Shown: piece after piece, positions 9,005 through 64,000 of the stretch
Position numbering within the stretch: position 1 is the stretch's first letter
Layout of the letters: the number at the start of each line of letters is the position of its first letter
From: Algoriphagus pacificus
GTDB lineage: Bacteria; Bacteroidota; Bacteroidia; Cytophagales; Cyclobacteriaceae
Direction of reading: 5' to 3'
Assembly (NCBI RefSeq): GCF_017254845.1
Contig: NZ_JAFKCU010000001.1
Span: 62,001 to 126,000, forward strand
DNA length: 64,000 nt
Translations under genes and position numbers: made by a program
The notes under the pieces: generated by a model
What the model was told of the DNA's origin: nothing
Databases searched by the model: none
Seen by the model: the letters and a program-made list of their open reading frames with translations, nothing else

Positions 9005-9036
9005 AAAAAGGATTGAACGAAAGTCCAATCCTTTTT
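9005..9036 (-). terminator. Terminator of the rpoA-rplQ end of the ribosomal operon
   Basis: An 11-bp stem (AAAAAGGATTG at 9005-9015 pairing with CAATCCTTTTT at 9026-9036) around a ten-base loop, ending in a T-run on the minus strand. It lies 23 bases downstream of the rplQ stop and upstream of carA. Confidence 0.88.
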
Positions 9037-9058
9037 AATATCTAAGTCATTAATCAAC

Positions 9059-9589: not shown

Positions 9590-9595
9590 CGTTAT

Positions 9596-10585: not shown

Positions 10586-10623
10586 ATATCTTGTTCTTTT
10601 TTTAAAAGCTGAAAATAGTAAAA

Positions 10624-11229
10624 TTACTTAGAGTAAAGTTCGACAATGAGTTGTTCCTTGACATTCTCTGGAATATCATCTCTGGAAGGTACACTGACGA
10701 ATTTGCCGGACAAGGAAGCGCTATCCCACTCTAACCAGGAATATTTATTAGCACCTCTACCAGCCAAACTATTGGTAATAGCTTCCAAAGATTTTGATCT
10801 CTCTCTTACGGAAACAACATCACCAGGCTTCAATGAATAGGAAGGAATATTTACTACTTCACCGTTTACAAGCACGTGCTTGTGAGAAACCAATTGTCTG
10901 GCACCTCTTCTAGTTGGAGCAATTCCCATTCTATACACGGTGTTATCCAATCTTGCTTCAAGAAGCTGAAGAAGGTTTTCACCTGTAATACCAGATTTTC
11001 TGGAAGCAATATCAAACATCTTAGCGAATTGTCTTTCCAACACTCCGTAGATGTATTTTGCTTTCTGCTTTTCAGCAAGCTGAATAGCGTATTCTGACTG
11101 CTTCTTTCTTCTACCTCTACCATGTTGTCCTGGAGGGTAGTTTTTCTTTTGAAGCGCTTTGCTATGCCCTTCGATAGGCTCGCCAAATTTTCTGGCGATC
11201 TTTGCTTTAGGACCTGTATATCTAGCCAT
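10624..11229 (-). CDS. rpsD: 30S ribosomal protein S4
   Basis: S4 is a primary 16S rRNA-binding protein that starts 30S assembly. The 201-residue protein has a conserved N-terminal region ([18 protein letters not shown]) and an S4 RNA-binding domain (about 93-155; [23 protein letters not shown]). It contains no cysteine at all, so it is the zinc-free form. In some bacteria S4 represses its own operon; no matching RNA structure was identified here. Gene order is rpsM-rpsK-rpsD-rpoA. Confidence 0.98.
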
Positions 11230-11246
11230 TCTTTTACAATTTTAAA

Positions 11247-11645
11247 TTAAACTCTTCTACGCTTAGGAGGACGACATCCATTGTGTGGCATAGGAGTTAC
11301 GTCTGTAATAGTCGTTACATCCAAACCAACATTTTGCAATGTTCTGATCGCTGATTCACGACCAGATCCTGGACCTTTCACAAATACTTCGATCTTTCTC
11401 AAACCTAAGTCATAAGCTACTTGTCCGCAGTTTTGCGCCGCCATCTGTGCAGCGTAAGGAGTATTTTTCTTTGAACCTCTGAATCCCATTTTACCGGCAG
11501 AAGCCCAAGAGATCACTTGACCTGCATTATTGGTAATAGAGATGATGATATTGTTGAAGGAAGCTCTGATGTGAACTTGTCCTACAGCTTCTACCTTAAC
11601 AACTCTTTTTTTACCTTTTGCTTTATCGTTTCTTTTCTGAGCCAT
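11247..11645 (-). CDS. rpsK: 30S ribosomal protein S11
   Basis: S11 lies on the 30S platform next to the mRNA exit path. The 132-residue protein carries the family core ([25 protein letters not shown]) and the invariant C-terminal part [11 protein letters not shown] ... [16 protein letters not shown]. It is positioned between rpsM (14 bases) and rpsD (17 bases) in the alpha-operon order. Confidence 0.98.
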
Positions 11646-11659
11646 AATCTAATCAGGTT

Positions 11660-12037
11660 TTATTTAGTTGCTTTTTTCTTGTTGGCAACTGTCTTTCTCT
11701 TACCCTTCCTTGTTCTGGCGTTGTTCTTGGTATGCTGACCACGAACTGGAAGTCCTTTTCTGTGTCTCAAACCTCTGTAACAACCAATATCCATTAGTCG
11801 CTTGATGTTCAATTGGATCTCTGACTTCAGTACACCTTCGGTTCTGAATTCTTCGGCAATAATGTTACGGATTGCGGTTGATTCATCATCATCCCACTCA
11901 CCTGCTTTTTTGTCGAAAGAGATACCGGCTTTGCTCAGGATCGCCTTGGCGGAGCTTCTTCCAATTCCGAAGATATATGTAAGCCCGATTTCGCCACGCT
12001 TATTGTCTGGTATGTCTACACCTGCAATTCTAGCCAT
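11660..12037 (-). CDS. rpsM: 30S ribosomal protein S13
   Basis: S13 is in the head of the small subunit and contacts the large subunit and the P-site tRNA. The 125-residue protein starts [19 protein letters not shown], has the helix-turn region [12 protein letters not shown], and ends in the basic tRNA-contacting tail ([16 protein letters not shown]). It follows rpmJ by four bases. Confidence 0.98.
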
Positions 12038-48440: not shown

Positions 48441-51434
48441 ATGAGAAATTATTTACAAAAACTCAAGTCGTTGCTGCTTGTAATGGTGCTTTTGATAAGT
48501 GCCACATTAGTAGCAAACGCCCAAAGTAGAACCGTGACTGGAACAGTCTTGGACGCTACTTTTGGAGACCCTGTTCCAGGTGCGACGGTGCTAGTAAAAG
48601 GTACTACCCGTGGTGTCGCCACAGATCTAGATGGTAAGTTCTCAATTGACCTACAATCTGGAGATCAAATTCTTGTGATTTCATTCGTTGGGTATATTAC
48701 CCAGGAAGTTGAAATCGGAAACCAATCTACTATCACTGTAAATCTTGAAGAAGATATTCAGAGCCTAGAAGAGGCAGTAGTTATTGGTTATGGTTCTCAG
48801 GACAAAAAAGAAATCACCTCCGCTGTGGTTGGTGTGAAGCCTGAAGATTTTAACAAAGGTAACGTATCTAACCCTGCTCAATTATTGCAAGGTAAGGTAG
48901 CTGGTCTATCCATTACCAGACCAGGTGGTAACCCAAACAATGGTTTCAATGTGAGATTAAGAGGTCTTTCCACCTTTGGAGCAAACTCTTCTCCTCTTAT
49001 TGTATTGGATGGTGTAATCGGTGCTTCATTGGAAAACGTAGATCCTAATGACATCCAGTCTATTGATGTATTGAAAGATGGTTCCGCAGCTGCTATTTAT
49101 GGTGCTAGAGGTTCTTCTGGTGTAATTCTTATTACCACCACTAAAAAAGGAGGCAAAGATGGAAGAGCAAATGTTTCTATCAATGCTTTTGGAACAATGG
49201 ACCAAGCAACTAATCTGATTCCAGTTCTTTCTGCTGAAGAATTTGTAGCAAGAGGCGGAACTGACTTTGGTAGTAACACAGATTGGAGAAACGAATTGAT
49301 CGGTGATGCATTCTCTTATACTACCAATGCCAGCGTATCAGGTGGATTCAATAACACTAACTACATGGCTTCTGTAAACTACAGAGATAACCAAGGTATT
49401 GTAAATGGTGTATCTAACCAAAGACTAAATACAAGGTTAAACCTACAGCAAGGTGCATTTGATAATAAGTTGAGATTCAATATCAACCTATCATTCACAA
49501 ACGTTGATTCCGAGTCTATCAACGACGCAGCATTCAGATATGCTACGCTTTATAACCCAACAGCACCAGTTTTCGAAAATTCTGAAGATGCAATGAATCG
49601 TTTCAATGGATATTTCCAGAGAGATTTGTTTGACTTCTACAATCCGGTTGCGTTGGCAAACCAGCAAAAATTCGTAGGTGAGACTAAGACAGCTTTGACT
49701 TCTTACAGAGCTGAATATGACATCCTTCCAAATTTGACTGTTTCTGCTCAATATTCTCAAGACAGAAGAAATACACTTTCTGGAGCTTTCTGGTCTCAAT
49801 ATGATTTCCAAGTAGGTCTAGGAGCCGGTGGTTCTGCTCAAAGAAATACTTTTGACAGAGCTCAGAAAATCTTTGAATCTACTATCAGATATGAAATTGA
49901 TCTATCAGATGGATTGAATATGACTTTACTTGGTGGTGCTGCTACTCAGACTACTAAAAATCAGGGATTCAATGCTCGAGTAAGACAATATCTTTTCGAC
50001 TTGGGTTGGGATAACTTAGGAGCTGGATCTATCAGATTGGGTAACAATACTGATGTTTCTTCCTTTGCAAATGAAGACAAGCTAAACTCTTTGTTTGGTA
50101 GAGCTAACTTCAACTACAACAACACATTCTTCTTCTCTGCATCTGTTAGAGCGGAAACTTATTCTGGATTTGGTCAAAACAATCAAACCGGTGTATTCCC
50201 TGCATTCAGTTTAGGTTCTGACTTTACTCAAGTTTTCGACATGGGTATTTTCAGTCAATTTAAGCCAAGAGTATCTTACGGTATCACTGGTAACCTACCT
50301 CCATCTCCAACCTTGGCTTTGGGTGTGTATGGTAATGGTAACAGAATCGATCTAGACGGCGATCCTTTGACAACAAATGATGTCTATGTTGGTATCGTTC
50401 AAAACTCAAACCCTAACAAGGATTTGAAGTGGGAGACTAAAAAAGAAATCAACTTCGGTGTTGACTTTGGAATCTGGAACAATAAGGTAACTGGTAGCAT
50501 GGATTATTATGTTAGAAACATTTCTGACTTGCTATTCAACGTTCCTGTTGCTACTGGTGCTCCAAACCCATTTGATCCAGGAAGATTCAATACTGCTTCT
50601 TCAACTTGGGTGAACCTTGCTGATTTGAGAGCTGCTGGTTTTGAATTTGCCTTGGGAGTAACTGATATCGCTTTGGGTCCAATCAAATGGAATCCAAATA
50701 TCAACTTCACCATCTATGACAAGACAACAATCGAAAGTTTATCAGCTGGTGAGCTAGGATTTGAAGAATTAAGATTCGCACCTCCGGGATCTCCTGGTCA
50801 GAACAACAACCCGATGATCTACAACAGAGTAGGCCAAACTTTGGGTGATTTCTACGGACCAAGATTATTAGGTTTGACTGATGGTGGTGAGTATATCCTT
50901 TCTACTACAGATCCAAATGAATTCGAAAGATTAGGAAATGGTCTTCCAAAAGGTGAATTCGGTTTTGCAAACAATTTCGTGTATGGAGCTTGGAACTTAA
51001 GCTTCTTCTTGAGAGGTGCTTGGGGTCATGATCTTTACAACTCTTACAGAGGTTTCTATGAAAATGCAGATGCAGGATCAAATACTTGGAACTCTGTTGT
51101 AACAGACAAAACTCCTTCTTCTCCATTGGTTACATCTACTCCAACATTCAACAGCTCTTACATTGAAGATGCTTCTTTCGTCAGATTGGATAACATGGAA
51201 GTGGGTTATAACTTCAAGACAAGTTCTCCAAACTTGAATTCTTTCAGAGTTTATTTTGCGGCTCAGAACTTATTCACGATTACAAATTACACAGGTGTAG
51301 ATCCTGAAGTAAGAATTACAGACAGTGAAAATGGAGATGGATTTACTACTTCATTGTCGCCGGGTATTGAGAGAAGAAATACTTACTTCCAAACAAGATC
51401 ATTGACTTTGGGTGTAACTGTAAATTTTAAATAA
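48441..51434 (+). CDS. SusC/RagA-type TonB-linked outer-membrane transporter
   Basis: The 997-residue protein has a signal peptide (residues 1-28, ending VANAQ), a carboxypeptidase-D-like domain (30-105, VTGTVLDATFGDPVPGATVL), a TonB-box-like EEAVVIGYG (111-118), a plug domain (121-235; NVRLRGLSTFGANSSPLIVL, IYGARGSSGVILITT) and a barrel ending SLTLGVTVNFK. SusC proteins import oligomers delivered by the SusD lid. The partner susD starts 19 bases downstream. No STN domain is present. Substrate unknown. Confidence 0.95.
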   Translation: MRNYLQKLKSLLLVMVLLISATLVANAQSRTVTGTVLDATFGDPVPGATVLVKGTTRGVATDLDGKFSIDLQSGDQILVISFVGYITQEVEIGNQSTITVNLEEDIQSLEEAVVIGYGSQDKKEITSAVVGVKPEDFNKGNVSNPAQLLQGKVAGLSITRPGGNPNNGFNVRLRGLSTFGANSSPLIVLDGVIGASLENVDPNDIQSIDVLKDGSAAAIYGARGSSGVILITTTKKGGKDGRANVSINAFGTMDQATNLIPVLSAEEFVARGGTDFGSNTDWRNELIGDAFSYTTNASVSGGFNNTNYMASVNYRDNQGIVNGVSNQRLNTRLNLQQGAFDNKLRFNINLSFTNVDSESINDAAFRYATLYNPTAPVFENSEDAMNRFNGYFQRDLFDFYNPVALANQQKFVGETKTALTSYRAEYDILPNLTVSAQYSQDRRNTLSGAFWSQYDFQVGLGAGGSAQRNTFDRAQKIFESTIRYEIDLSDGLNMTLLGGAATQTTKNQGFNARVRQYLFDLGWDNLGAGSIRLGNNTDVSSFANEDKLNSLFGRANFNYNNTFFFSASVRAETYSGFGQNNQTGVFPAFSLGSDFTQVFDMGIFSQFKPRVSYGITGNLPPSPTLALGVYGNGNRIDLDGDPLTTNDVYVGIVQNSNPNKDLKWETKKEINFGVDFGIWNNKVTGSMDYYVRNISDLLFNVPVATGAPNPFDPGRFNTASSTWVNLADLRAAGFEFALGVTDIALGPIKWNPNINFTIYDKTTIESLSAGELGFEELRFAPPGSPGQNNNPMIYNRVGQTLGDFYGPRLLGLTDGGEYILSTTDPNEFERLGNGLPKGEFGFANNFVYGAWNLSFFLRGAWGHDLYNSYRGFYENADAGSNTWNSVVTDKTPSSPLVTSTPTFNSSYIEDASFVRLDNMEVGYNFKTSSPNLNSFRVYFAAQNLFTITNYTGVDPEVRITDSENGDGFTTSLSPGIERRNTYFQTRSLTLGVTVNFK

Positions 51435-51453
51435 TCAATCAAAAATCAGAGAC

Positions 51454-52944
51454 ATGTTAAAATATATTAGTAAAATCTGTCTATTGGTTCCAGTGGTATT
51501 CTTACTGGGATCATGTTGGGAATTGGATCAGGAGGTCCTCGACGGAGTTACTCCTGAGGATGTTGCAAATAGCAATAACCCAGAATTGATTGACGTTTTG
51601 AAAGCTTCTGCTTATTCAAGAATTGTTGGTAGCTGGGGAGGTCATAACAGTATTTGGTCTATCTACGAAGTAGCTTCTGATGAGATGGCAATCCCTCAAA
51701 AAGGTGCTGACTGGGAAGATGGTGGTCTATGGCTAAGAATGCACAGACATACTTGGGGACCATCTGACGAGGCTTTCAATAACTCTTGGAACTATTGCTT
51801 CACAGCAATCGGTGAGATCAACAACTTGATTATCTCTTTCCCGGATGTAGAAGCTTTGAATGCTGAATTGAAAGTACTTCGTGCTTTGACTTACTTATGG
51901 TTGATCGATAGCTTTGGTAACGTTCCTATCGTAACTGAAGAATCTACAGGTGGAAACCCAACCAATAATTCAAGACAAGAAGTTTTCAATTTCATCGAGT
52001 CTTCAATTTTGGACAACGTTGATTTGCTTACTAAAGCAAACACAAAAACCACGATCAATTACTATACAGCTCATGCAATGTTGGCTAAGTTGTATCTAAA
52101 TGCTGAAATCTACACCGGAACTCCTAGATGGGCTGACGCAGAAGCTGCAGCTGACGTTGTAATTAATAGCGGTATGTATTCTTTGTCTACTAATTTCTTC
52201 AGCAACTTTGCTACAAGAAACGGTGGATCTACTGAAAACATCTTGACTTTGCCATATGACGAAAACAACGCAGGTGGTTTCAACTTGGTACAGATGACTC
52301 TTCACTACCTAAGCCAAAACACATTCAACCTTCAGGAGCAGCCATGGAATGGTTATGCTTCTTTGGAAGAATTCTACAATGGCTTCGATGACAATGACGT
52401 AAGAAAGCAAAGCTTTTTAGAAGGTCCTCAGTTTGCTGCAGATGGCACAAGATTGAATGATATTTCTGCTGAAGCAGGTGATCCAGATGGACAGCCTTTG
52501 ACCTTCACACCAGAAATCAACATGCTTGCTCCAAATGCATTCAGACAAGCTGGTGTTAGAGTTGGAAAATTTGAATTCGCTTCCGGTTCTCCATCTAACA
52601 TGAGTAATGATTATCCTTTGATCAGATTGTCAGACATCATTTTGATCAAAGCTGAAGCTGCTTTCCGTCAAGGAAAATTAGATGCTGCTTTAGCTGCTAT
52701 CAACCAAGTGAGAACTAGAGCAAATATGCCTGCGTTCACTACCTTGACTTTAGATGACATCTACAATGAAAGAGGTTATGAATTGTTTGCTGAGGCTTCC
52801 AGAAGAACTGACATGATCAGATTCGGAAAATGGAATGAGCCTTGGTGGGAAAAAGGAGCTTCTGAACCATACAGAGCATTATTCCCAATTCCATTGCAAC
52901 AAATCAATGCAAACCCTAACTTGACTCAAAACCCAGGTTATTAA
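51454..52944 (+). CDS. SusD/RagB-family surface lipoprotein
   Basis: SusD-type proteins sit as a lid on SusC at the cell surface and bind the nutrient. The 496-residue product has a lipoprotein signal ending LLGSC (Cys21) and the family's C-terminal SusD pattern: DYPLIRLSDIILIKAEAAFR, then AAINQVRTRANMPAF and NERGYELFAEASRRTDMIRF, ending in PNLTQNPGY. It is preceded by susC and followed by a terminator/promoter-like element. Confidence 0.95.
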   Translation: MLKYISKICLLVPVVFLLGSCWELDQEVLDGVTPEDVANSNNPELIDVLKASAYSRIVGSWGGHNSIWSIYEVASDEMAIPQKGADWEDGGLWLRMHRHTWGPSDEAFNNSWNYCFTAIGEINNLIISFPDVEALNAELKVLRALTYLWLIDSFGNVPIVTEESTGGNPTNNSRQEVFNFIESSILDNVDLLTKANTKTTINYYTAHAMLAKLYLNAEIYTGTPRWADAEAAADVVINSGMYSLSTNFFSNFATRNGGSTENILTLPYDENNAGGFNLVQMTLHYLSQNTFNLQEQPWNGYASLEEFYNGFDDNDVRKQSFLEGPQFAADGTRLNDISAEAGDPDGQPLTFTPEINMLAPNAFRQAGVRVGKFEFASGSPSNMSNDYPLIRLSDIILIKAEAAFRQGKLDAALAAINQVRTRANMPAFTTLTLDDIYNERGYELFAEASRRTDMIRFGKWNEPWWEKGASEPYRALFPIPLQQINANPNLTQNPGY

Positions 52945-52968
52945 TAGCATTTGATAAATTAAAGTAGA

Positions 52969-53000
52969 GGAAGTGTACTTTTGTGCACTTCCTTTTTTTT
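52969..53000 (+). terminator. Strong hairpin terminator after susD, overlapping a promoter-like box
   Basis: A ten-bp stem (GGAAGTGTAC at 52969-52978 with GTGCACTTCC at 52983-52992, one G-T pair), a four-base loop and eight Ts. It ends ten bases before the next start codon. The loop region reads TACTTTTG (52976-52983), a match to the Bacteroidota -7 box, with a TTTG at 52950-52953 (spacer 22, longer than usual). Confidence 0.85.
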
Positions 53001-53009
53001 CAAAACCCC

Positions 53010-56000
53010 ATGAAAATTAGGACTTACATCCTATTTCTAACCCTTTTATCGATTTCCTGCTCACAACAAGACAGGAAAGAAATCCCCCTATACCAATTAC
53101 TCTCTGAAGAGGAATCTGGAATCAGTTTTAGAAATGATCTGAATTACACCGAACAAGTCAATCCTTATACATTTAGAAATTTTTACAATGGTGCTGGAGT
53201 GGCACTCGCTGATATCAATCAAGATGGTTTGATCGATATTTTTTTTGCTGGAAATCAAACCTCCAATAGACTTTACCTCAACGAAGGAAATCTAAAGTTT
53301 AAAGACATTACAGTTTCGGCTGGACTGGAATCTGAAAACATCTGGTCCACCGGTGTTAGCATGGCTGATATCAACAGCGATGGATTAACAGATATTTTTG
53401 TTTGCAAATCAGGACCTCCAGGAGGTGCCAAAAGACACAATGAATTGTTTATTAATAACGGTGACCTGACCTTCTCCGAAAAATCTACATCCTATGGGTT
53501 GAATGATGCAGGTCTTTCCCAACATGCCGTATTTTTTGATTATGATAAAGACGGAGATCTCGATCTTTACCTTCTTAGCAATTCCACCCGATCAGTGGGT
53601 GTTTTCGATTTACGTGAAGGGCAAAGAGAAATCCGCGATGAAACGGGAGGAAACAAACTTTACAGAAACGAGGGAGAGAAATTTACAGATGTAAGCGAAG
53701 AAGCGGGAATCTTTGGAAGTGCGATTGGTTATGGGCTCGGCGTCACTGTAGCCGACCTCAATGCCGACAGCTGGCCAGACCTGTATGTTTCCAATGACTT
53801 TTTCGAGCGCGATTACCTCTATCTCAATAATCAGGACGGTACATTCAGCGAACAATTGCCAGACTTGATTTCAGAACTCAGCATGGGCTCCATGGGTGCA
53901 GATATCGCCGATCTCGACAATGATGGTAGACCGGATATTTTTGTCACTGAAATGCTTCCTGCAAAACTGGAACGGGTCAAAACAAAAACTCCACTTGAAG
54001 ATTGGGATAAATACCAAGCGAATATCAAAGCTGGATACCATCATCAATTTACTAGAAACACGCTTCAAAGAAATCTTGGATTCAATCCAGAGACAAACAA
54101 ACCCATATTCTCTGAAGTATCCCGGCAAACAGGCATGGAAGCGACAGATTGGAGTTGGGGAGCTTTGATCTTTGATGCGGATAACGATGGTCTCAAAGAT
54201 GTATTTGTTGCCAACGGGATCGTTAAAGATTTGACTGATTTTGACTTCGTGGACTTCTATGTAAACAATCAGGAAAAAGTCGAAGGTTATAGAAAAGACT
54301 CTGTTCTTTTGACCAAAATGATTGATGAATTTCCTTCCAATCCGCAGCAGAATTATTGGTTCAAAAATTTGGGAAATTGGGAGTTCGAAAATCTCGCTGA
54401 TTCCATTGGGCTTTCGCAAAAGACATTCAGCACAGGAGCAGCTTATGGAGATTTGGACAACGATGGGGATTTGGACTTGGTCATCAATAACCTGAACGAA
54501 AGAGCTTATATCTATCAAAACAACACACGAGAAAAAGGCGGGAACTCAAATTACCTAACAGTTGATTTGGGACAGGAATTTGGGGCTCAGGTAACTTGCT
54601 TCATCCAGAACAAAGAGCTCTATCAAGAATTTCAGCCAGTCAAAGGATACATGTCGTCTGTCGATCCCAGACTTCATTTTGGCTTGGGGGATGCCACCAA
54701 GGTTGACTCCATTCAGGTCAAGTGGTCTAATGGGGAAATCAGTCTTTTCAAAGAAATTGCGGCAAACCAAACGATTGGATTAAAACAAATTAGTCTCGCA
54801 ACCAATCCACCAGTTAGTAGATCAGGAAATTCTTTATTCACTAAGTCGACTTACAATATTCCTTTCTCCCATGAGGAAAGCGAGTTTATAGATTTTGACA
54901 GGGATCGGCTTCGATTTTGGATGATCAGTAACGAAGGTCCTCAGGCCGCTGCTGCGGATATTAATGGAGATGGATTAGAAGATTTGTTTCTTCCAGGTGC
55001 CAAAGGCCAAAGCTCAAGTTTGATGATCCAGCATGCGAATGGTGATTTTAAGCCGGTTCAAGGCGACTTATTTTCAAAAGACAACTTAGCTGAGGATGTC
55101 GTTTCGCATTTCTTTGATGCCAATGGAGACAGCTACCCGGATCTGATCGTTGGTGCTGGTGGAATCGAGTTTGCAAATGGCGCGATCCAATACCAAGACC
55201 GTCTCTACCTAAATGATGGAAAAGGAAATCTGAAAGAAACTGAAACCAATTTCCCAACTCAACCAACTGGATTCATTCTTTCGGAGGATTTTGATTTGGA
55301 TGGTGATGAGGACTTAATATTTGGCTATCGATCAATTCCTTTTGCTTATGGTTTACCAACATCCATCTCATTTTGGAAGAATGACGGACAAGGTAATTTT
55401 GAAGACGTTTCCAGTTCTTTCGGATTCGATTTTTCCAAAATCGGAATGCTTACAGCAGGAGCTTGGGCAGATCTAAATGCGGATGGTAAGCCAGAATTGA
55501 TTGTGGCTGGCGAATGGATGCCAATTCGGATTTTCACATTATCCAATGGAAAGTTTGAAGAAAAGACTCTTGATTTTGGATTTGCCGAAACAAATGGTCT
55601 TTGGAACACTTTGCAAGTAGAAGATATCAACGGAGATGGTCAACCCGATATTTTAGCTGGAAACCTAGGCCTCAATAGCCGATTGAAAACTTCGCCTGAA
55701 AAGCAACTTCAACTCTACATCAATGACTTTGATCAAAATGGATCCTTAGATCCGATTTTGGTCAGCTCAAACGGTCAGCAGGCTATTCCTTGGCTGATGA
55801 AAAATACTTTATTGAAGCAGCTGCCATCATTAAAGAAACAATTGCCAACCTACGCTTCTTACCAGAATAAGAGTTTGCAAGAGCTCTTTCCAAAAGAAGT
55901 TTTGGCAAATTCTTTAATTTTGAAAGCAGATATCTTAAGTACAAGCGCTTGGGTGAATCAAGGCAATGGTACCTTTGAAAAACTCCAATTGCCACAGGAA

Positions 56001-56297
56001 ATCCAATCTGCACCGGTATATGCCATTCAATCCTTTCAGGATCTAGAGGGCAGACAATTCCTGATCTTTGGTGGAAATCAAAGCAAGATCAAACCTGAAC
56101 TTGGTAGCCAGATGGGAAGTTTTTCCTGGGTGCTTCAAAAATCAAAAGAAAATAAGTGGGAAGTTTTACTTCCGGAAAATAGCGGAATTTATGTCCCTGG
56201 TGAGATTCGGGACATTTTATCAGTCCGCATTAATAATGAAGATCATTTACTCTTTTTGAGAAATAATGAAAATACAATTGCATTCAAGATTCGTTAG
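53010..56297 (+). CDS. FG-GAP/VCBS and ASPIC/UnbV lipoprotein, paralogue 1
   Basis: I start at ATG 53010 (MKIRTYILFLTLL), which gives a lipoprotein signal with SISC (Cys17); the longer frame starts inside the terminator. The 1095-residue protein has seven Dx[DN]xDGxxD-type calcium motifs before residue 510, one ASPIC/UnbV domain (about 520-583, ending FGLGDATKVDSIQVKWSNGE) and six more calcium motifs after it, so two beta-propellers probably flank the ASPIC domain. It is likely a surface lipoprotein. Function unknown; relatives are often called CRTAC1-like. Confidence 0.9.
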   Translation: MKIRTYILFLTLLSISCSQQDRKEIPLYQLLSEEESGISFRNDLNYTEQVNPYTFRNFYNGAGVALADINQDGLIDIFFAGNQTSNRLYLNEGNLKFKDITVSAGLESENIWSTGVSMADINSDGLTDIFVCKSGPPGGAKRHNELFINNGDLTFSEKSTSYGLNDAGLSQHAVFFDYDKDGDLDLYLLSNSTRSVGVFDLREGQREIRDETGGNKLYRNEGEKFTDVSEEAGIFGSAIGYGLGVTVADLNADSWPDLYVSNDFFERDYLYLNNQDGTFSEQLPDLISELSMGSMGADIADLDNDGRPDIFVTEMLPAKLERVKTKTPLEDWDKYQANIKAGYHHQFTRNTLQRNLGFNPETNKPIFSEVSRQTGMEATDWSWGALIFDADNDGLKDVFVANGIVKDLTDFDFVDFYVNNQEKVEGYRKDSVLLTKMIDEFPSNPQQNYWFKNLGNWEFENLADSIGLSQKTFSTGAAYGDLDNDGDLDLVINNLNERAYIYQNNTREKGGNSNYLTVDLGQEFGAQVTCFIQNKELYQEFQPVKGYMSSVDPRLHFGLGDATKVDSIQVKWSNGEISLFKEIAANQTIGLKQISLATNPPVSRSGNSLFTKSTYNIPFSHEESEFIDFDRDRLRFWMISNEGPQAAAADINGDGLEDLFLPGAKGQSSSLMIQHANGDFKPVQGDLFSKDNLAEDVVSHFFDANGDSYPDLIVGAGGIEFANGAIQYQDRLYLNDGKGNLKETETNFPTQPTGFILSEDFDLDGDEDLIFGYRSIPFAYGLPTSISFWKNDGQGNFEDVSSSFGFDFSKIGMLTAGAWADLNADGKPELIVAGEWMPIRIFTLSNGKFEEKTLDFGFAETNGLWNTLQVEDINGDGQPDILAGNLGLNSRLKTSPEKQLQLYINDFDQNGSLDPILVSSNGQQAIPWLMKNTLLKQLPSLKKQLPTYASYQNKSLQELFPKEVLANSLILKADILSTSAWVNQGNGTFEKLQLPQEIQSAPVYAIQSFQDLEGRQFLIFGGNQSKIKPELGSQMGSFSWVLQKSKENKWEVLLPENSGIYVPGEIRDILSVRINNEDHLLFLRNNENTIAFKIR

Positions 56298-56850
56298 TTT
56301 AGGATTTCTTCTCTTGTTGTGCCTTAGCGCTTGCCAGACTCCTTATGAAAAGATGGTCGCGGAAGAATTGGCGTCAGGAAAAGAAGTGAAAGAATTATTC
56401 CTCGGGTTGGAACTGGGAATGTCCAGAAAAGATTTCTTTGAAACATGTTGGGAGCTAAACAGCAAAGGCATCCTGACTAATGGACCAACGGAATTAAGTG
56501 TGGAATACGATGCTCCATTACCTTCAGGAAATGCAGCAAAAATGAGGTTTTACCCTAAGTTTGAAAATGATAAAATCTATATGATGCCAGTGGAGTTTGC
56601 ATACGAAGGCTGGGCTCCGTGGAATGAGGAATTATCCGTGGAAAAATTGAGGGAAGATGTGCTCCAGCTATTTGAAAAATGGTATGGAAAAGGTTTTATC
56701 GAAGTGAGTAATGAAGACAAAAGTCAAATCGCATTTGTCAAAGTTGACGGCAACAGAAGGATCAGGATTTTCAAAAAACACCTTTCTATTGTCAGAGCTG
56801 AGATTTTGGATTTGAAAGTACAAGAAGAACTAGAAGCAGACCCATCATGA
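56266..56850 (+). CDS. Small lipoprotein of unknown function between two propeller lipoproteins
   Basis: The 194-residue product has a lipoprotein signal ending LSAC near residue 23 and a mature part with a motif-like GKEVKELFLGLELGMSRKDF. No known domain is recognised. Its start overlaps the end of paralogue 1 by 32 bases and its stop overlaps the start of paralogue 2 by four bases (ATGA), so the three genes are translated from one mRNA. It may be an accessory or assembly factor for the propeller proteins. Confidence 0.8.
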   Translation: MKIQLHSRFVSLGFLLLLCLSACQTPYEKMVAEELASGKEVKELFLGLELGMSRKDFFETCWELNSKGILTNGPTELSVEYDAPLPSGNAAKMRFYPKFENDKIYMMPVEFAYEGWAPWNEELSVEKLREDVLQLFEKWYGKGFIEVSNEDKSQIAFVKVDGNRRIRIFKKHLSIVRAEILDLKVQEELEADPS

Positions 56851-59800
56851 GAAAAATAATTGTTGGTTTACTCCTGTCTTCCGTTCTGTTCTCCTGCCAA
56901 GAAGAGCAAAAGTCAGAAACTACCCTATTCAAAAAGATAGACCCTAAGGAGTCAGGAATAGATTTCAGAAACGACCTTTCTTTTGATGAGGAATTTAACA
57001 TCTTCACCTACCGAAATTACTACAATGGAGGTGGCGTTGCCTTGGGCGATATCAATAACGATGGCTTGCTCGATATTTACTTTTCAGCCAATCTAAGCGA
57101 TAACAAACTCTATCTGAACAAAGGAAATTTCCAGTTCGAGGACATCACTGATCAAGCTGGTGTGGCTGGTAAAAGTGCCTGGAGTACCGGTGTAGCAATG
57201 GCGGATGTCAATGGAGATGGTTTTTTGGATATCTATGTCTGCAACTCCGGAGATATCGCTGGTGACAACAAGAAAAATGAATTATTCATCAACAAAGGAG
57301 ACGGAACCTTTACGGAACAAGCTGAAACTTATGGTTTAGCAGATCAGGGGTTTTCCACCCATGCGGTTTTTTTCGACTATGATAAGGATGGAGATCTCGA
57401 TGTCTATTTATTGAACAACAGCTACGAGGCTATCGGAAGCTTCAACAAGATGCAAAATGAGCGTCCAAAAAGAGACGCTGTAGGTGGGGATAAATTATTC
57501 AGAAACGATGGTGAAAATTTCACTGATGTCAGCGAAGAAGCGGGGATTTTTGGATCAATAATCGGTTTTGGACTGGGAATTACTATCGGAGATGTCAATC
57601 AGGATACTTGGCCGGATATCTTTATCTCAAACGACTTTTTCGAAAAAGATTACCTCTACATCAACAATCAAGATGGAACTTTCACAGAGTCTTTGGAATC
57701 CAGTATGAGATCTATCAGTGCTGCATCCATGGGTGCTGATATTGCAGATATCAACGGGGATGGGCTTTTGGACATCTTTGTGACTGACATGCTACCTGAG
57801 ATTCCTACAAGACTGAAGCAGGTAACGACTTTTGAAAACTGGGACAAATTCCAGTTCAATAAAACTCACGGATACCACTATCAATTCTCCCGAAACATGC
57901 TTCATGTCAATAATGGAGACGGAAGCTTTAGTGAAATGGGAAGACTGGCAAATGTAGAAGCTACTGACTGGAGTTGGGGAGCTTTGATATTTGATATGGA
58001 TGGAGATGGGATGAAAGATCTTTTTGTTGCCAATGGAATTTACCAAGACATCACCGATCTGGATTACCTGAATTTCATCGACGATGAAGAGACCAAAATC
58101 AAAATCATTTCTCAAGAAGGAGTGGATTACAAAGCTCTGATTGATCCGATTCCAATTAATCCTGTCTCTAATTATGCTTATCACAACTTAGGAGACTTGC
58201 ATTTTGAGAATAAGGCAAATGATTGGGGATTGGGAGAACCGATTCAATCCAATGGCGCTGCTTACGGAGATCTGGATAATGACGGGGATTTGGATCTTGT
58301 GGTGAATAATGTCAATGATCCAGCGCTATTATTCAGAAATGATACCCGTGAATTTTTCCCAAATCATCATTTCCTACAGTTGCAGCTGAAAGGAAAAGGT
58401 AAAAACACGGAAGCAATCGGTACACAGATACTTGTCAAAGCCGGAGACAAAAAGTTCTATATGGAACAAATGCCAAACCGTGGCTTCCAATCATCTGTGG
58501 ATCCAAAATTGACTTTAGGGCTTGGGGAGCTTTCCTCAGTTGATGAAATCAATGTGCTTTGGCCTGATGGTTCATTCACACAAATGAAATCCGTTTCAGC
58601 CGATCAATTGATCCAACTGGACTGGAATGAAGCTGGTGAGATGCCTGATAATTTTGATTTTTTTGAAAAACCAGCCGGAGATTTCTTCGAAAAAGAAACA
58701 GCTTCCAAATTGGAATTTACACATCAGGAAAATCCAATGGTTGATTTTGACCGAGATCGACTTACCTACCACATGCTTTCAACAGAAGGCCCCGCCTTTG
58801 CCAAAGGCGATGTGAATGGAGATGGTTTAGAAGATCTTTACCTGGGAGGTGCGAAAACCTTTGTTGGTAAGTTATTCCTGCAACAAAGGGATGGCAGCTT
58901 TAAACTATCTGAGCAATCTGCTTTTGCCATAGATGCTCTTTCTGAAGATACTGACGCACTTTTTGTTGATGTAAACGGAAATGGGATTTTGGATTTGGTT
59001 GTTGCTTCGGGCGGAAATGAATCCGGTTTGGGTTCGCCTGATCTGATGGATCGAATTTATATCAATGACGGAAAAGGGAATTTCGAGAAAAAACAAAACA
59101 CCGGATTTGCTTCAGTTTTAGGAAGCAGTTCTGTCATAAAAGTTTTGGATATCAATTCCGATGGAGCGATGGACCTGTTTATGGGGGGAAGATTGGTGCC
59201 TTTTGTTTACGGAGCTCCTGCCTCAAGTACACTTTGGATCAATGATGGGACAGGAAGTTTTACTGATCAAACGGATCAAATAGCACCGGCTCTCAAAGAA
59301 ATCGGCATGGTAACAGATGCCGCAGTATTGGATTATGATCAGGATGGAAAAGAGGATTTGATCTTGGTGGGAGAATGGATGGCGCCAACTTTCCTAAGAA
59401 ACACAGGAAATAAACTGGATCTGATTGAAATGCCGGAAATGGAATCCCTAAAAGGCTGGTATAGAAGTCTGGCTGTTGGAGATTTTAACGAAGACGGTAA
59501 ACCTGATTTGATTCTTGGAAATCATGGCTTAAACACCCGGTTCAAAACTGATTCGGAGCATCCAATTTCAATGTATTTAAATGATTTTGATCAAAATGGA
59601 GCGGTGGAACACATCTTTACCCGCCAAAATGATGGCTTGCAGGTCCCCTATACTTTGAAGCATGAACTGGAAAAGCAAGTGCCAGGTATCCGGAAAAAAT
59701 ACATGCGGTATAGCAATTACAACAATGAAATGCTGACGGATTTATTCCCAGAGGATGCCATTGCCAATTCTATCCGCAACCAAATAAATCAATTGGCATC

Positions 59801-60155
59801 CGGAATTCTGATCAATGAAGGAAATGGAAAATTCACGTGGAATGCTTTGCCAAGAATGGCTCAGAAATCCTGGATTTTCGCAATTCAAACCACAGATCTC
59901 AATGCAGATGGGCATTTGGATTTGATCCTTGGAGGAAACTTGACACAAGCGAAACCTGAGGTCGGAAAATATGATGCCAGCTATGGTGAAATCCTACTAG
60001 GAAATGGTGATGGGACATTTACCTATTGGCCAAACTCCCAGCACGGAATGAAGCTGGAAGGAGATATCCGGGCTATTGACAAGCTAGACGAGGATCAATT
60101 CTTGATTGTTAAAAACAGCGGTACAGCTGAAATTTGGAAGGTTACAAATAAGTAA
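56847..60155 (+). CDS. FG-GAP/VCBS and ASPIC/UnbV lipoprotein, paralogue 2
   Basis: The 1102-residue protein has a lipoprotein signal with LFSC (Cys17) and the same layout as its neighbours: seven DxDxDGxxD-type motifs before the ASPIC/UnbV domain (about 521-590) and seven after. The last, DLNADGHLDLIL near 59896-59931, is complete here but degenerate in paralogues 1 and 3. The N-terminal FRNDLSFDEEFNIF and YYNGGGVALGDIN, and the C-terminal EGDIRAI, recur in variant form in all three. Start overlaps the small lipoprotein stop (ATGA). Confidence 0.92.
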   Translation: MRKIIVGLLLSSVLFSCQEEQKSETTLFKKIDPKESGIDFRNDLSFDEEFNIFTYRNYYNGGGVALGDINNDGLLDIYFSANLSDNKLYLNKGNFQFEDITDQAGVAGKSAWSTGVAMADVNGDGFLDIYVCNSGDIAGDNKKNELFINKGDGTFTEQAETYGLADQGFSTHAVFFDYDKDGDLDVYLLNNSYEAIGSFNKMQNERPKRDAVGGDKLFRNDGENFTDVSEEAGIFGSIIGFGLGITIGDVNQDTWPDIFISNDFFEKDYLYINNQDGTFTESLESSMRSISAASMGADIADINGDGLLDIFVTDMLPEIPTRLKQVTTFENWDKFQFNKTHGYHYQFSRNMLHVNNGDGSFSEMGRLANVEATDWSWGALIFDMDGDGMKDLFVANGIYQDITDLDYLNFIDDEETKIKIISQEGVDYKALIDPIPINPVSNYAYHNLGDLHFENKANDWGLGEPIQSNGAAYGDLDNDGDLDLVVNNVNDPALLFRNDTREFFPNHHFLQLQLKGKGKNTEAIGTQILVKAGDKKFYMEQMPNRGFQSSVDPKLTLGLGELSSVDEINVLWPDGSFTQMKSVSADQLIQLDWNEAGEMPDNFDFFEKPAGDFFEKETASKLEFTHQENPMVDFDRDRLTYHMLSTEGPAFAKGDVNGDGLEDLYLGGAKTFVGKLFLQQRDGSFKLSEQSAFAIDALSEDTDALFVDVNGNGILDLVVASGGNESGLGSPDLMDRIYINDGKGNFEKKQNTGFASVLGSSSVIKVLDINSDGAMDLFMGGRLVPFVYGAPASSTLWINDGTGSFTDQTDQIAPALKEIGMVTDAAVLDYDQDGKEDLILVGEWMAPTFLRNTGNKLDLIEMPEMESLKGWYRSLAVGDFNEDGKPDLILGNHGLNTRFKTDSEHPISMYLNDFDQNGAVEHIFTRQNDGLQVPYTLKHELEKQVPGIRKKYMRYSNYNNEMLTDLFPEDAIANSIRNQINQLASGILINEGNGKFTWNALPRMAQKSWIFAIQTTDLNADGHLDLILGGNLTQAKPEVGKYDASYGEILLGNGDGTFTYWPNSQHGMKLEGDIRAIDKLDEDQFLIVKNSGTAEIWKVTNK

Positions 60156-60156
60156 A

Positions 60157-63100
60157 ATGAGAATTAAATCACTTGGTTTACTGGTCTTGGCTTGTGCTTT
60201 CTTTTCCTGTGAAAAAGAAACCGAACAAGCGACCAAGCTTTTCGAACTCCTACCTTCTGAACAAACAGGAATCAATTTTGAAAACAACCTGACCTCCACG
60301 CCTGAATTTAATATTCTCGAATACCTGTATTTCTACAATGGAGGAGGCGTCGCTGCCGGAGACATCAACAATGATGGATTAATAGATCTTTATTTTACTG
60401 GCAACCAAGTTTCAAACAAACTTTACCTCAACAAAGGGGATTTTAAGTTTGAAGATATCACAGATAAAGCCGGGGTGACAGGCGAAAATGGCTGGTCTAC
60501 TGGAGTCACGATGGCCGATGTCAACGGAGATGGATTATTGGACATCTACGTTTCGCAGGTCGGAGATTACAAAAGCATAAAAGGCAAAAACCGACTTTAT
60601 ATCAATCAAGGAGACGAAACCTTCCTTGATTTGGCATCAGAATATGGCCTTGATTTCGTTGGATTCAGCACCCAAGCTGTATTTTTTGATTACGACCGGG
60701 ATGGAGATTTGGACATGTACTTACTTAATCATTCCGTCAAATCGCCTGAGGTTTTTTCCAAAGCTTCTACCCGCCAAACTCCCGATGAGAAAGGAGATAA
60801 ACTTTTCAAAAATCTAGCAGCTGAAGGTGAAAACAGGTTTGAAGATGTGACAGTCGAATCAGGAATTTATTCCAGTATCCTAGGTTTTGGACTGGGTGTT
60901 GGGGTAGCTGATTTCAACAGCGACGAATGGCCTGACATTTACGTTTCCAATGATTTCACCGAAAATGATTACCTCTATATCAATCAGCAAAACGGAACTT
61001 TCCTTGAATCCTTAGAAGACAAAATCGCCAATACCAGCCGGTATAGTATGGGAAATGATTTGGCTGATTTGAATGGAGATGGAATGCCGGAAATCTTCAC
61101 AACAGATATGCTTCCTGAAAACCCTGAAATCTGGATGAAATCAGTTGGAGAGGATAAGTCTGAAGTTTATCAGATCAAAAAGCAATTTGGATACAATGAT
61201 CAATATGTGAGAAATCACTTGCAGGTCAATCTTGGAAATGGGGATTTCAGTGAATTGGCATTGTTTGCAGGGGTATCAGCTTCAGATTGGAGTTGGTCGC
61301 CATTGATTTTCGACATGGACAATGATGGTCTCTCGGATATTCATGTGACAAATGGAATCGTCAAGCGACCTAATGATCTGGATTTTATCCAGTATAGCCA
61401 AGAAGTGGACCCGAACAGCTCGATGGAGCAGTTGAGGAAAACCCAGATTGACATGCTGCCAACAGTTAAGCTGTCCAATTATGCATTCCAGAATACTGGG
61501 GAATTAAAATTCACAAACAAAGCAAGTGCTTGGGGATTGGATCAACCAAGCTATTCCAATGGCTCGACTTACGCAGATTTGGATAATGACGGTGACCTGG
61601 ATTTAATTCTAAATAACCTCAATCAACCTGCTTTTGTCTATAAAAATCATTCAGAAAAATCTGGGAATAACTTTCATTCTGTTACCCTAGAAAATCAAGC
61701 TTTTAATCAATTCGGTATTGGATCCAAAGTGACTGTCTTCAGCGGCGATCAACTTTTTTCACAGTATGTTGGGAATAGTCGTGGCTTCCAATCAGCAGTT
61801 AGTCCAGAGCTGGTTTTTGGATTAGGAAATTCTGAAAAGATCGATTCTGTTTGGGTTGAATGGCCAGAAGGCGAAAAAGAAGTTTTTCTTGATCTTAAGA
61901 CAAATAGCAAAGTAACGCTTGAAAAAGGAAGAGGAAAAGCTTTTGTAACTTCTTCTACCCAAAATTCAAAAGAGGAAAAATTCCCATCCATTGACTGGAT
62001 GCATGAAGAAAAGACAGAAGTGGATGAAGTCAAAAGAGAGTATTTGATACCACGTTCTTTTTCGGTTTTAGGCCCTGCTTTGGCAGTAGCAGATGTAAAT
62101 TCTGATGGATTAGAGGATGTCTATTTAGGAGGTGCTAAAGATCAGCCTGGAGTTCTTTACCTTCAAAAATCCTCAGGTGAGTTCGAAGCAGTTTCCAATC
62201 CTATTTTCCAGCAACTTGCCAAGGCGGAGGATGTCGTTGCTGAGTTCGCAGATTTCAATCAAGATGGATTGATGGATTTGATCGTGGGAAGTGGCGGCAA
62301 TGAATATGATCCAGGTAATCTCTTCCTTTTCGACAGAATCTACTTTGGTAAAGGAAATGGCCAATTTCAGTTTATTCCAAATGCCCTGCCTCCTATAGGA
62401 GAAAACACCTCCACGATCGCAATCCATGATGTGGATGGAGATGGGGGTCTAGATCTGTTTCTGGGTGCTTCGGTTGTTGCGGGAGATTATGGAGCTTCAC
62501 CAAAAAGCAGCTTGTTGATCAATTTAGGAAATGGCCAATTCAGGGATGAAACTAGTGACTGGATGGGAACTGAAGGCAATCTGGGCATGATCAATTCAGC
62601 AGTTTGGGCTGACCTTGACGGGGATTCTATCGAGGAATTGATCCTTACTGGAGATTGGCAGCCAATCAGAGTATTTAAATTGACCAGCGATAATCGCTTG
62701 AAAGAGACTTCGATTCCTGGTTTAGAAAGATCAGCAGGATGGATCCAATCTTTAAAAATCGCTGATATAAATGGTGATGGTCGTCCTGATATTTTAACAG
62801 GGAATCTGGGAGAAAACTCAAAATTGAAAGCGAGTTATGAAAATCCACTTTGGCTTTACCATGCAGATTTTGATGGAAATGGACAGGCTGATCCATTGAT
62901 TTTTCATTACATGGAGAACAAGCTGGTTCCTTTTGCAACCCGAGACGATCTGATAAAACAGATTCCGGGAATCAAAAAACTTCATGGCTCTTATGCTGAT
63001 TATTCCAGGATCTCCAAGCCAGAAGAATTATTTCCTAGCCCTGCATTGAATGCAGCTAATAAGTATCCGGTTTTTGAATTGAGGTCTGGGGTTTATTTCC

Positions 63101-63426
63101 AACAAGAAAATGGAAGTTTTGTATTCGAGCCATTTCCTAGTTCGGTTCAATGGTCTCCTGTCATGGATATGTATTGGGATGACAACCAAAAAACCTTGCA
63201 TTTGGCTGGGAATTTCTCAGGATTCAGGGTTGATCTTGGAAAAACAAACAGCCTACCTTTCCAATCTTGGAATTATCAGGGAGGATCTTGGAAGAAAATA
63301 AATTTGAACTCTGATATTCCAAATCAATCAGAAATCAGAAGAATCCGTCCTATTTCAGTTAGTGGAGGAAATTATTTGTTGGCAGCTCCAAATTCATCTG
63401 TCCCTTATTGGGTCAAAATCCCTTAA
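60157..63426 (+). CDS. FG-GAP/VCBS and ASPIC/UnbV lipoprotein, paralogue 3
   Basis: I start at ATG 60157, directly after the stop of paralogue 2 (one base between), giving MRIKSLGLLVLACAFFSCEK with lipobox FFSC (Cys18) and 1089 residues. Seven calcium motifs precede the ASPIC/UnbV domain (about 516-577, RGFQSAVSPELVFGLG) and six follow. The last motif position is degenerate (MYWDDNQKTLHLAGN). It closes the tandem trio; the next gene has its own promoter. Confidence 0.92.
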   Translation: MRIKSLGLLVLACAFFSCEKETEQATKLFELLPSEQTGINFENNLTSTPEFNILEYLYFYNGGGVAAGDINNDGLIDLYFTGNQVSNKLYLNKGDFKFEDITDKAGVTGENGWSTGVTMADVNGDGLLDIYVSQVGDYKSIKGKNRLYINQGDETFLDLASEYGLDFVGFSTQAVFFDYDRDGDLDMYLLNHSVKSPEVFSKASTRQTPDEKGDKLFKNLAAEGENRFEDVTVESGIYSSILGFGLGVGVADFNSDEWPDIYVSNDFTENDYLYINQQNGTFLESLEDKIANTSRYSMGNDLADLNGDGMPEIFTTDMLPENPEIWMKSVGEDKSEVYQIKKQFGYNDQYVRNHLQVNLGNGDFSELALFAGVSASDWSWSPLIFDMDNDGLSDIHVTNGIVKRPNDLDFIQYSQEVDPNSSMEQLRKTQIDMLPTVKLSNYAFQNTGELKFTNKASAWGLDQPSYSNGSTYADLDNDGDLDLILNNLNQPAFVYKNHSEKSGNNFHSVTLENQAFNQFGIGSKVTVFSGDQLFSQYVGNSRGFQSAVSPELVFGLGNSEKIDSVWVEWPEGEKEVFLDLKTNSKVTLEKGRGKAFVTSSTQNSKEEKFPSIDWMHEEKTEVDEVKREYLIPRSFSVLGPALAVADVNSDGLEDVYLGGAKDQPGVLYLQKSSGEFEAVSNPIFQQLAKAEDVVAEFADFNQDGLMDLIVGSGGNEYDPGNLFLFDRIYFGKGNGQFQFIPNALPPIGENTSTIAIHDVDGDGGLDLFLGASVVAGDYGASPKSSLLINLGNGQFRDETSDWMGTEGNLGMINSAVWADLDGDSIEELILTGDWQPIRVFKLTSDNRLKETSIPGLERSAGWIQSLKIADINGDGRPDILTGNLGENSKLKASYENPLWLYHADFDGNGQADPLIFHYMENKLVPFATRDDLIKQIPGIKKLHGSYADYSRISKPEELFPSPALNAANKYPVFELRSGVYFQQENGSFVFEPFPSSVQWSPVMDMYWDDNQKTLHLAGNFSGFRVDLGKTNSLPFQSWNYQGGSWKKINLNSDIPNQSEIRRIRPISVSGGNYLLAAPNSSVPYWVKIP

Positions 63427-63442
63427 TTGAAGCCCTTCAATA

Positions 63443-63473
63443 TTTGCAAAATCGTTAATTTCCAATACTTTTG
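63443..63473 (+). promoter_or_regulatory. Promoter of the haloperoxidase-like gene
   Basis: TTTG (63443-63446), a 19-base spacer and TACTTTTG (63466-63473), an exact consensus match, about 100 bases before the ATG at 63573. It lies in the gap after paralogue 3, so the next gene can be expressed separately. Confidence 0.8.
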
Positions 63474-63572
63474 ACCACCCAAACGAATCAGAACAAACGT
63501 TAAAAAGTTTGAGCTTGGCCGCTGATTATCTTAAATTTACGGTCTATTACTACCCTATCACTTGTAAATATC

Positions 63573-64000
63573 ATGCGTTTTATAAAAATCATAGCAAGTC
63601 TTTGCTTGCTGATTACTGTAATATCCTGTCAAGAGAAAGTTGATTATTCCAACGTAATTACGGACGGAACTTATCTCAGCAATGCCCAAAATAGAATTAC
63701 TGAAGTAATTATCCACGACATCTTTTCTCCTCCAGTTGCGGCTAGAATTTATTCTTATTCCAGCTTAGCAGCTTATGAGGTTGCTGCAGCAGCAGATCCA
63801 AATTATGTGTCTTTGTTAGGCCAGTTAAATGGTTCTGAAAAGACGACTTTCAATCCTTCTGAAAAAGTTTACTTGCCTTTGGCATCTTTGGCAGCCTACT
63901 ATTATGTAGGAACCGGACTTATCTTCTCTGAGGATATGATGAATGAGCATAGAGATGCAGCCTATGCCGAATTGAAAGAAAAAGGTATTCCAGAGGATGT
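63573..64000 (+). CDS. Vanadium haloperoxidase/PAP2-like lipoprotein, C-terminal part beyond the window
   Basis: About 142 N-terminal residues are visible. A lipoprotein signal ends VISC (Cys19). The following segment (TEVIIHDIFSPPVAARIYSY, then SSLAAYEVAA) resembles the N-terminal region of Bacteroidota vanadium-dependent haloperoxidase/PAP2 lipoproteins, which are often found beside FG-GAP/ASPIC genes. The catalytic residues lie in the missing C-terminal part, so activity cannot be judged. No stop is seen before the right edge. Confidence 0.7.
   Translation, partial: MRFIKIIASLCLLITVISCQEKVDYSNVITDGTYLSNAQNRITEVIIHDIFSPPVAARIYSYSSLAAYEVAAAADPNYVSLLGQLNGSEKTTFNPSEKVYLPLASLAAYYYVGTGLIFSEDMMNEHRDAAYAELKEKGIPED

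What the first reader, a model, noticed from the sequence alone, without database searches (positions are those of the whole stretch)
48441..64000. SusCD locus in which three tandem double-propeller ASPIC lipoproteins replace degradative enzymes
Seen: susC, susD, three ~1,100-residue FG-GAP/ASPIC-UnbV lipoproteins, one small lipoprotein and a haloperoxidase-like lipoprotein on one strand, with overlapping or near-touching genes in the middle. Known: SusCD pairs usually come with glycoside hydrolases, sulfatases or proteases. Inference: the propeller proteins may form a surface complex that binds or modifies a substrate for SusC, possibly with oxidative chemistry from the haloperoxidase. No such system is known to me by name.
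Basis: partly seen in the sequence, partly recalled or inferred. Interest (0 to 1): 0.72.

Follow-up and report, generated by a model that had tools for sequence, protein, structure and literature searches.

The report
Transporter operon with triple propeller lipoproteins
This is a conserved bacterial nutrient-uptake gene cluster in which three large propeller-shaped proteins, related to an animal cartilage protein, and in some lineages a haloperoxidase-like enzyme accompany the outer-membrane transporter; what it takes up is not yet known.

Summary
In detail: susC, susD, ASPIC-1, a small lipoprotein (s), ASPIC-2, ASPIC-3 and a vanadium-haloperoxidase-like lipoprotein (V, cut by the window edge; 447 aa in full) lie in this order on one strand of a genome whose nearest named relatives are Algoriphagus. 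The order is old and conserved: in 15 of 15 named genomes checked, from four families, the best susD match lies just upstream of the ASPIC-s-ASPIC block. A survey anchored on s finds it in 27 of 395 genomes of the phylum. In 25 scored loci ASPIC is present in 25, susC/D in 18, V in 5. So the core is SusCD + ASPIC-s-ASPIC(-ASPIC), and V is a lineage-specific addition. ASPIC-2 models as a CRTAC1-like part plus a second propeller. V resembles the Zobellia haloperoxidase, with its vanadate-site residues conserved. 'Replacing degradative enzymes' fits Algoriphagus, not the V-anchored loci at large: 36 of 80 carry glucoside or glycerol genes, but so do 9 of the 24 without ASPIC. Best reading: a SusCD uptake system whose accessory proteins are CRTAC1-like double propellers; substrate unproven. 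The papers searched did not show a description of it.

The parts
48441..51434 (+). susC-like TonB-dependent transporter, 997 aa
   Evidence: Pfam CarbopepD_reg_2, Plug, TonB barrel
51454..52944 (+). susD-like lipoprotein, 496 aa
   Evidence: SusD_RagB 101 bits, SusD-like_3; best match of the genome lies at the same place in 15 of 15 named genomes
52966..52995 (+). terminator-like hairpin, 13-bp stem with T run, between susD and ASPIC-1
   Evidence: the 72 bases after susD fold at -17.5 to -27.9 kcal/mol in 19 of 19 susD genes examined, without a shuffle control; 99.2% of 130 cells paired, 3 pairs changed on both sides in 10 sequences
53010..56297 (+). ASPIC-1: FG-GAP/UnbV_ASPIC lipoprotein, 1095 aa
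   Evidence: FG-GAP_3 248 bits, UnbV_ASPIC 76 bits; positional clade
56266..56850 (+). small lipoprotein s, 194 aa, marker of the unit
   Evidence: 25 aligned relatives, lipobox Cys invariant; model pLDDT 92.9; one match per genome in 27 of 395 genomes
56847..60155 (+). ASPIC-2: double-propeller lipoprotein, 1102 aa
60157..63426 (+). ASPIC-3: FG-GAP/UnbV_ASPIC lipoprotein, 1089 aa
   Evidence: A3 lineage distinct and deep
63573..64000 (+). V: vanadium-haloperoxidase-like lipoprotein, cut by the window edge (447 aa in full, 916 bases beyond the window)
   Evidence: L007 3573-4916; PDB 4cit/4usz E 5e-141; sites conserved

Best explanation
The locus encodes a dedicated SusCD outer-membrane uptake system whose accessory lipoproteins are CRTAC1-like double propellers instead of the usual binding proteins and polymer-cutting enzymes. 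Shown by sequence: ASPIC-1, s and ASPIC-2 are lipoproteins encoded right after susD by overlapping genes, and ASPIC-3 follows. This core (C-D-A-s-A, often with a third A) is conserved across families and beyond the class. Inferred: the ASPIC lipoproteins sit on the cell surface, bind the substrate with calcium-stiffened propellers (12-13 DxDxDG-type motifs each), hand it to SusCD as in a utilisome, and s is their dedicated partner. In the window's genus and some relatives a Zobellia-type vanadium haloperoxidase ends the operon; it probably acts on the substrate, or on peroxide and halide, at the surface or in the periplasm. In several other lineages the same gene run continues into glucosidase, trehalase, kojibiose-hydrolase and glycerol genes, which makes small alpha-glucosides such as glucosylglycerol or trehalose the leading but unproven substrates there.
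Against: No expression, binding or localisation data. The hairpin after susD weakens 'one transcript'. V is not found in 20 of 25 s-anchored stretches, glucoside or glycerol genes not in 24 of 25. The window's genome has no hit for kojibiose hydrolase or GH37, and 0 of 13 named Algoriphagus loci carry the glucoside/glycerol genes. Those genes are about as common beside V without ASPIC (9 of 24) as with it (27 of 56), so they may go with V rather than with SusCD-ASPIC. The acidic stretch after the lipid Cys is clear for SusD but weak for ASPIC proteins, so surface exposure is inferred from context. 12 of 20 unpicked ASPIC loci in other families have no SusC/D within four genes upstream, so ASPIC is not always a SusCD partner.
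Confidence: 0.6

Rival explanations
1. Compatible-solute or small alpha-glucoside salvage: the unit imports glucosylglycerol, trehalose or kojibiose-type sugars, which GH65 and GH37 split to glucose and glycerol that enter by SSS/GPH carriers and a GlpF-like channel and are phosphorylated by ROK and GlpK-like kinases.
For: Anywhere in 80 V-anchored loci: kojibiose-hydrolase cluster 18, GH37 16, SSS 15, GlpK-like 12, GlpF-like 11, GH13 11, GlpD-like 10, ROK 9, GPH 9 (clusters named from one representative each; GlpK, GlpF and GlpD rest on FGGY, MIP and DAO matches). At least one of eight families in 36, two or more in 24; in the same-strand run 33. Kojibiose hydrolase equivalog 1098 bits over a cut-off of 800; trehalase Pfam 485 bits. 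otsAB next to V in five named Algoriphagus loci and in the window genome.
Against: Absent from all 13 named Algoriphagus loci and from 24 of 25 s-anchored loci. Present in 9 of 24 V loci without ASPIC against 27 of 56 with it, so the tie may be to V. Own genome has no hit for either hydrolase. Small solutes do not obviously need three 120-kDa proteins. otsAB makes rather than degrades trehalose.
Confidence: 0.25
2. Halide-oxidation machine: V makes hypoiodous or hypobromous acid at the cell surface from peroxide produced by sugar oxidation; the Ca-binding propellers and SusCD bind and import iodine or iodinated products.
For: V matches the Zobellia haloperoxidase 4cit at E 5e-141. Of 15 catalytic or neighbouring positions, 12 are identical in 89 of 89 homologues and three in 85, 88 and 88. 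Arenibacter C-21 needs glucose, oxygen and calcium to take up iodine and has at least five such genes (PMC5064120, whole text). A Zobellia iodoperoxidase (vIPO3) rises on a brown alga (PMC9296495, passages). GMC oxidoreductases lie in 3 of the V-anchored and 1 of 26 s-anchored loci.
Against: V is not found in most s-anchored stretches, so the core does without it; some hosts are not marine, to judge from record titles; no oxidase is fixed next to V in the loci mapped; activity untested.
Confidence: 0.1
3. The ASPIC proteins are enzymes (propeller lyases or dehydratases) rather than binding proteins, so the locus is enzymatic after all.
Confidence: 0.12
4. V is a phosphatase of the PAP2 superfamily and the unit scavenges glycerol-phosphate or phosphoglycoside polymers.
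For: Shared fold and catalytic residues of the superfamily (recalled); PAP2 match of 26.9 bits, just under its cut-off; glycerol genes beside V in other lineages; SusCD systems for organic phosphorus exist (PMC8115612, abstract and passages).
Against: Nearest solved relative is a haloperoxidase; a glycerol facilitator and kinase point to free glycerol; the main text of PMC8115612 has no occurrence of PAP2, VCBS, FG-GAP or haloperoxidase.
Confidence: 0.08

Closest known systems
SusCD utilisomes (levan and dextran systems of Bacteroides thetaiotaomicron; PMC7618045, passages seen)
   Same: SusC/SusD pair with accessory lipoproteins encoded nearby
   Different: The accessory proteins are three CRTAC1-like propeller proteins plus s, with no glycoside hydrolase found between susC and V in this locus and a haloperoxidase at the end
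CRTAC1 / ASPIC-UnbV family (PDB 9etn)
   Different: The bacterial proteins add a second propeller (about 609-1102), are lipoproteins, come in twos and threes and are often tied to SusCD
Zobellia galactanivorans vanadium haloperoxidase (PDB 4cit/4usz; called an iodoperoxidase in papers seen as listings and passages)
   Same: Nearly full-length match, vanadate-site residues identical
   Different: Here linked to ASPIC genes and SusCD; the Zobellia gene neighbourhood could not be checked
Branched-dextran utilisation system of Flavobacterium johnsoniae, with kojibiose hydrolase (PMC10316084, search listing and abstract start only; its link to the hydrolase recalled)
   Same: SusCD-type glucoside use; kojibiose-hydrolase genes occur beside relatives of V
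   Different: No kojibiose hydrolase found in the window genome; ASPIC triplet, V and glycerol genes are extra

Membership tests
SusCD-type polysaccharide utilisation locus | adjacent susC and susD genes | tested here: met
SusCD-type polysaccharide utilisation locus | CAZyme or other degradative enzyme in the locus | tested here: not met
   none found by Pfam between susC and V in the window; s has no Pfam match. I therefore call it a SusCD locus, not a PUL
SusCD-type polysaccharide utilisation locus | induced by and needed for a glycan | not testable with these tools
   no expression data
Utilisome | stable complex of SusCD with surface lipoproteins | not testable with these tools
   gene order only
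ASPIC/UnbV (CRTAC1) family | FG-GAP propeller plus ASPIC domain | tested here: met
   Pfam over cut-off in all three; fold match of ASPIC-2 to 9etn
Vanadium-dependent haloperoxidase | homology and vanadate-site residues K, R, S-G-H, R, H (motif recalled) | tested here: met
   (89 of 89 homologues at each of these positions)
Vanadium-dependent haloperoxidase | halide oxidation with vanadate and peroxide | not testable with these tools
   needs assay
Small lipoprotein s: any known fold family | clear structural relative in PDB | tested here: inconclusive

The most novel reading that the evidence does not exclude
A conserved outer-membrane machine in which a vanadium haloperoxidase and calcium-binding CRTAC1-type propeller lipoproteins carry out peroxide/halide chemistry at the mouth of a SusCD transporter, so that oxidative modification rather than hydrolysis prepares the substrate for import in the lineages that have V.
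Probability: 0.13. Interest if true: 0.85.

Novelty: new variant of a known kind. Interest (0 to 1): 0.6.

Why it matters
SusCD loci are a main way Bacteroidota feed, and their accessory proteins help decide what is eaten (recalled). A deep, conserved class whose accessories are CRTAC1-like double propellers and one private small lipoprotein has no assigned substrate that I could find. In some lineages it also gives bacterial vanadium haloperoxidases, whose role in bacteria is unclear to me (recalled), a fixed partner and a testable setting. The ASPIC family, known to me mostly from an animal cartilage protein, gets a bacterial context in which its function can be measured.

Tried and rejected
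Rejected: 'order only in this genome'. Rejected as general: glucoside and glycerol genes as part of the core (1 of 25). Weak: 3-keto-glycoside genes near the unit (two or more of four kinds in 2 of 26 s-anchored loci and in 3 V-anchored loci). Promoter-like sites were fewer than in shuffles (28 against 37.6) and terminator-like sites not clearly more (15 against 11.7, sd 3.7); only the hairpin after susD, with its 13-bp stem, was followed up. The fold of s gave no clear relative. Paper searches showed no paper describing SusCD with ASPIC or haloperoxidase genes; they cover only the held open-licence library, I read listings (20 of 353, 15 of 175), and opened few papers. The gene neighbourhood of the Zobellia enzyme could not be looked up (its paper is not held; the search with its sequence failed).

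Dropped before counts: L184 (s not kept by my ORF caller) from the 26 fetched s-loci; L127 and L128 (no ASPIC frame of 700 aa) from the ASPIC census, seven of whose 29 other-family loci (L106-L111, L144) had been picked for a nearby susD or V hit (picked: 5 of 7 with SusC/D; the rest 8 of 20 with SusC/D, 0 of 20 with V); haloperoxidase rows under 128 bits and ASPIC rows not listed by the tool; ASPIC frames under 780 aa from the tree. In the V-anchored survey susC/D are undercounted because the left flank was 10 kb. 'V absent' means not in the stretch fetched, about 10 kb each side and less at contig ends. P0001 (V of L008) lacks its first residue because of my coordinates; this touches only alignments A1 and A3 and the scan made with A3.
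Full report
What is there. The window is bases 62001-126000 of contig 1 of a 5.28-Mb genome; its nearest named relatives are Algoriphagus. On the + strand lie susC, susD, three ASPIC/FG-GAP lipoproteins of 1095, 1102 and 1089 aa with a 194-aa lipoprotein (s) between the first two, and a haloperoxidase-like lipoprotein (V) that continues beyond the window to 447 aa. Genes overlap or nearly touch from ASPIC-1 to ASPIC-3. A 13-bp terminator-like hairpin with a T run sits between susD and ASPIC-1. In 19 of 19 susD genes examined the next 72 bases fold into a hairpin at -17.5 to -27.9 kcal/mol, most with a T run (no shuffle control). In ten same-genus copies 99.2% of 130 pair cells hold, with three pairs changed on both sides (17 of 500 shuffles reached the covariation score). 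This suggests that susCD is made in excess of the ASPIC genes or separately terminated.

Is the order conserved? Of 13 same-genus loci fetched, 9 have the full C-D-A-s-A-A-V order. One lacks a detected ASPIC-1, with a reverse 402-aa frame in its place (L098). Two have the parts split into two divergent operons, with a second s-like gene found in L104. One keeps only A and V in the stretch (L105) (12 of the 13 were chosen for a nearby susD hit). In 80 named loci fetched around V relatives (the best 80 of 586), an s-A-A-V run (one gene allowed before V) occurs in 21, in records named Cyclobacteriaceae, Flammeovirgaceae, Roseivirgaceae and Flavobacteriaceae. For 15 of these 80 loci, all with an A-s-A block, I searched the whole genome with the window's SusD: in 15 of 15 the best match lies just upstream of the first ASPIC gene on the same strand (one search compared by coordinates with the ranges, since the contigs bear numbers only).

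A look not anchored on V. Because the V-anchored sample must contain V, I used s as a neutral marker. Its profile rings in 27 of 395 genomes of the phylum (the window's own included), one match each, in 13 of 170 genera and six family codes, including families outside the window's class. I fetched the 26 others; 25 could be scored. ASPIC is in 25 of 25, directly upstream of s in 21 and directly downstream in 23. Two ASPIC genes follow s in 13. SusC or SusD is in 18, with susD upstream on the same strand in 14. V is in 5, three of them of the window's genus. A glucoside or glycerol gene is in 1. Some stretches end at contig ends, so these are lower bounds. The ancient core is therefore SusC-SusD-ASPIC-s-ASPIC, often with a third ASPIC; V is an addition in some lineages.

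History of the three ASPIC genes. In a 118-protein tree the positional labels fall into clades: A1 21 of 21 (clade of 26, support 0.939), A2 26 of 27 (clade of 32, 0.997), A3 28 of 31 (clade of 39, 0.287). A 51-protein IQ-TREE run needs 2-3 label changes per position against 10-14 in shuffles and separates the A3 lineage with SH-aLRT 99; two A1 proteins fall with A2. With distant loci added, A3 holds (38 of 41 in a clade of 40, 0.999), but 13 of 16 distant 'before-s' copies fall with A2, so A1 and A2 are not cleanly separate that deep.

What goes with it. In 38 genomes of the genus and order, V matches above 700 bits have an ASPIC gene within 6 kb in 20 of 23 cases, those of 300-700 bits in 16 of 22, those of 128-300 bits in 0 of 7 (weaker rows left out). 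In the 80 V-anchored loci the run often continues into kojibiose hydrolase (GH65; the representative tested scores 1098 bits against a cut-off of 800), GH37 trehalase, GH13, GPH and SSS carriers, GlpF-, GlpK- and GlpD-like genes and a ROK kinase. At least one of eight such families is present in 36 of 80 and two or more in 24. Against a tie to SusCD-ASPIC: 9 of 24 V loci without ASPIC have them, against 27 of 56 with ASPIC, so they may travel with V. None of the 13 named Algoriphagus loci has them, and the window's genome gave no hit for kojibiose hydrolase or GH37. Other ASPIC genes of the genus also follow susCD (10 of 14 loci from four genomes; the other four precede V). In other families of the order 13 of 27 do, or 8 of 20 when loci picked for a susD or V hit are left out.

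How it probably works. Shown: a conserved SusCD unit with dedicated lipoproteins of known fold, and a haloperoxidase-type site in some lineages. Inferred: surface exposure, substrate binding, complex formation, the calcium role and the substrate. I favour a utilisome-like uptake system (0.6), with small alpha-glucosides including glucosylglycerol as the leading substrate guess in the glucoside-rich lineages (0.25, lowered from 0.28 because of the 9-of-24 result). A bolder reading couples sugar-derived peroxide, V and halide at the transporter. It draws on Arenibacter C-21, which needs glucose, oxygen and calcium to take up iodine and carries at least five genes like the Zobellia enzyme (PMC5064120, read whole), and on a Zobellia iodoperoxidase raised on a brown alga (PMC9296495, passages).

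Novelty. Paper searches listed no description of SusCD with ASPIC or haloperoxidase genes; the library is limited to open licences and two of the listings were cut. I rate it a new variant of a known kind: a SusCD uptake locus with an accessory set that I found described in none of the papers seen.

Noticed in passing
window 52966-52995: Terminator-like hairpin directly after susD, with hairpins at the same place in paralogous and other-family loci; it may set the ratio of SusCD to downstream lipoproteins.
   Followed up: partly
L008 (own genome C12), 5704-11773: Second ASPIC-haloperoxidase pair, genes overlapping by 4 bp, followed by a sulfatase and preceded by a ROK-family gene; the same order by size recurs in L136, L140, L141.
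   Followed up: partly
L009 and L010 (own genome): Two more susC-susD-ASPIC loci with other cargo: FGE-like, Gfo/Idh/MocA and TIM-barrel genes (L009); creatininase, asparaginase-2 and CutC (L010).
   Followed up: partly
L013 (own genome C23:291793-293091): Third haloperoxidase-like gene without an ASPIC match on its contig, next to a sugar-transporter-like frame (by eye).
   Followed up: no
L184-L187, L189-L192: In one family code (f50) an ASPIC frame of only about 600-630 aa lies in the locus (before s where s was called) in 8 of 8 loci, perhaps one propeller lost or the frame broken.
   Followed up: no
L103, L104: Same-genus group with the unit split into divergent C-D-s-A and A-(s)-A-V operons, keeping all parts.
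   Followed up: partly
L084, L089, L055, L181, L183: Two or more 3-keto-glycoside pathway genes (DUF1080, TIM barrel, Gfo/Idh, GMC) near the unit or V.
   Followed up: partly
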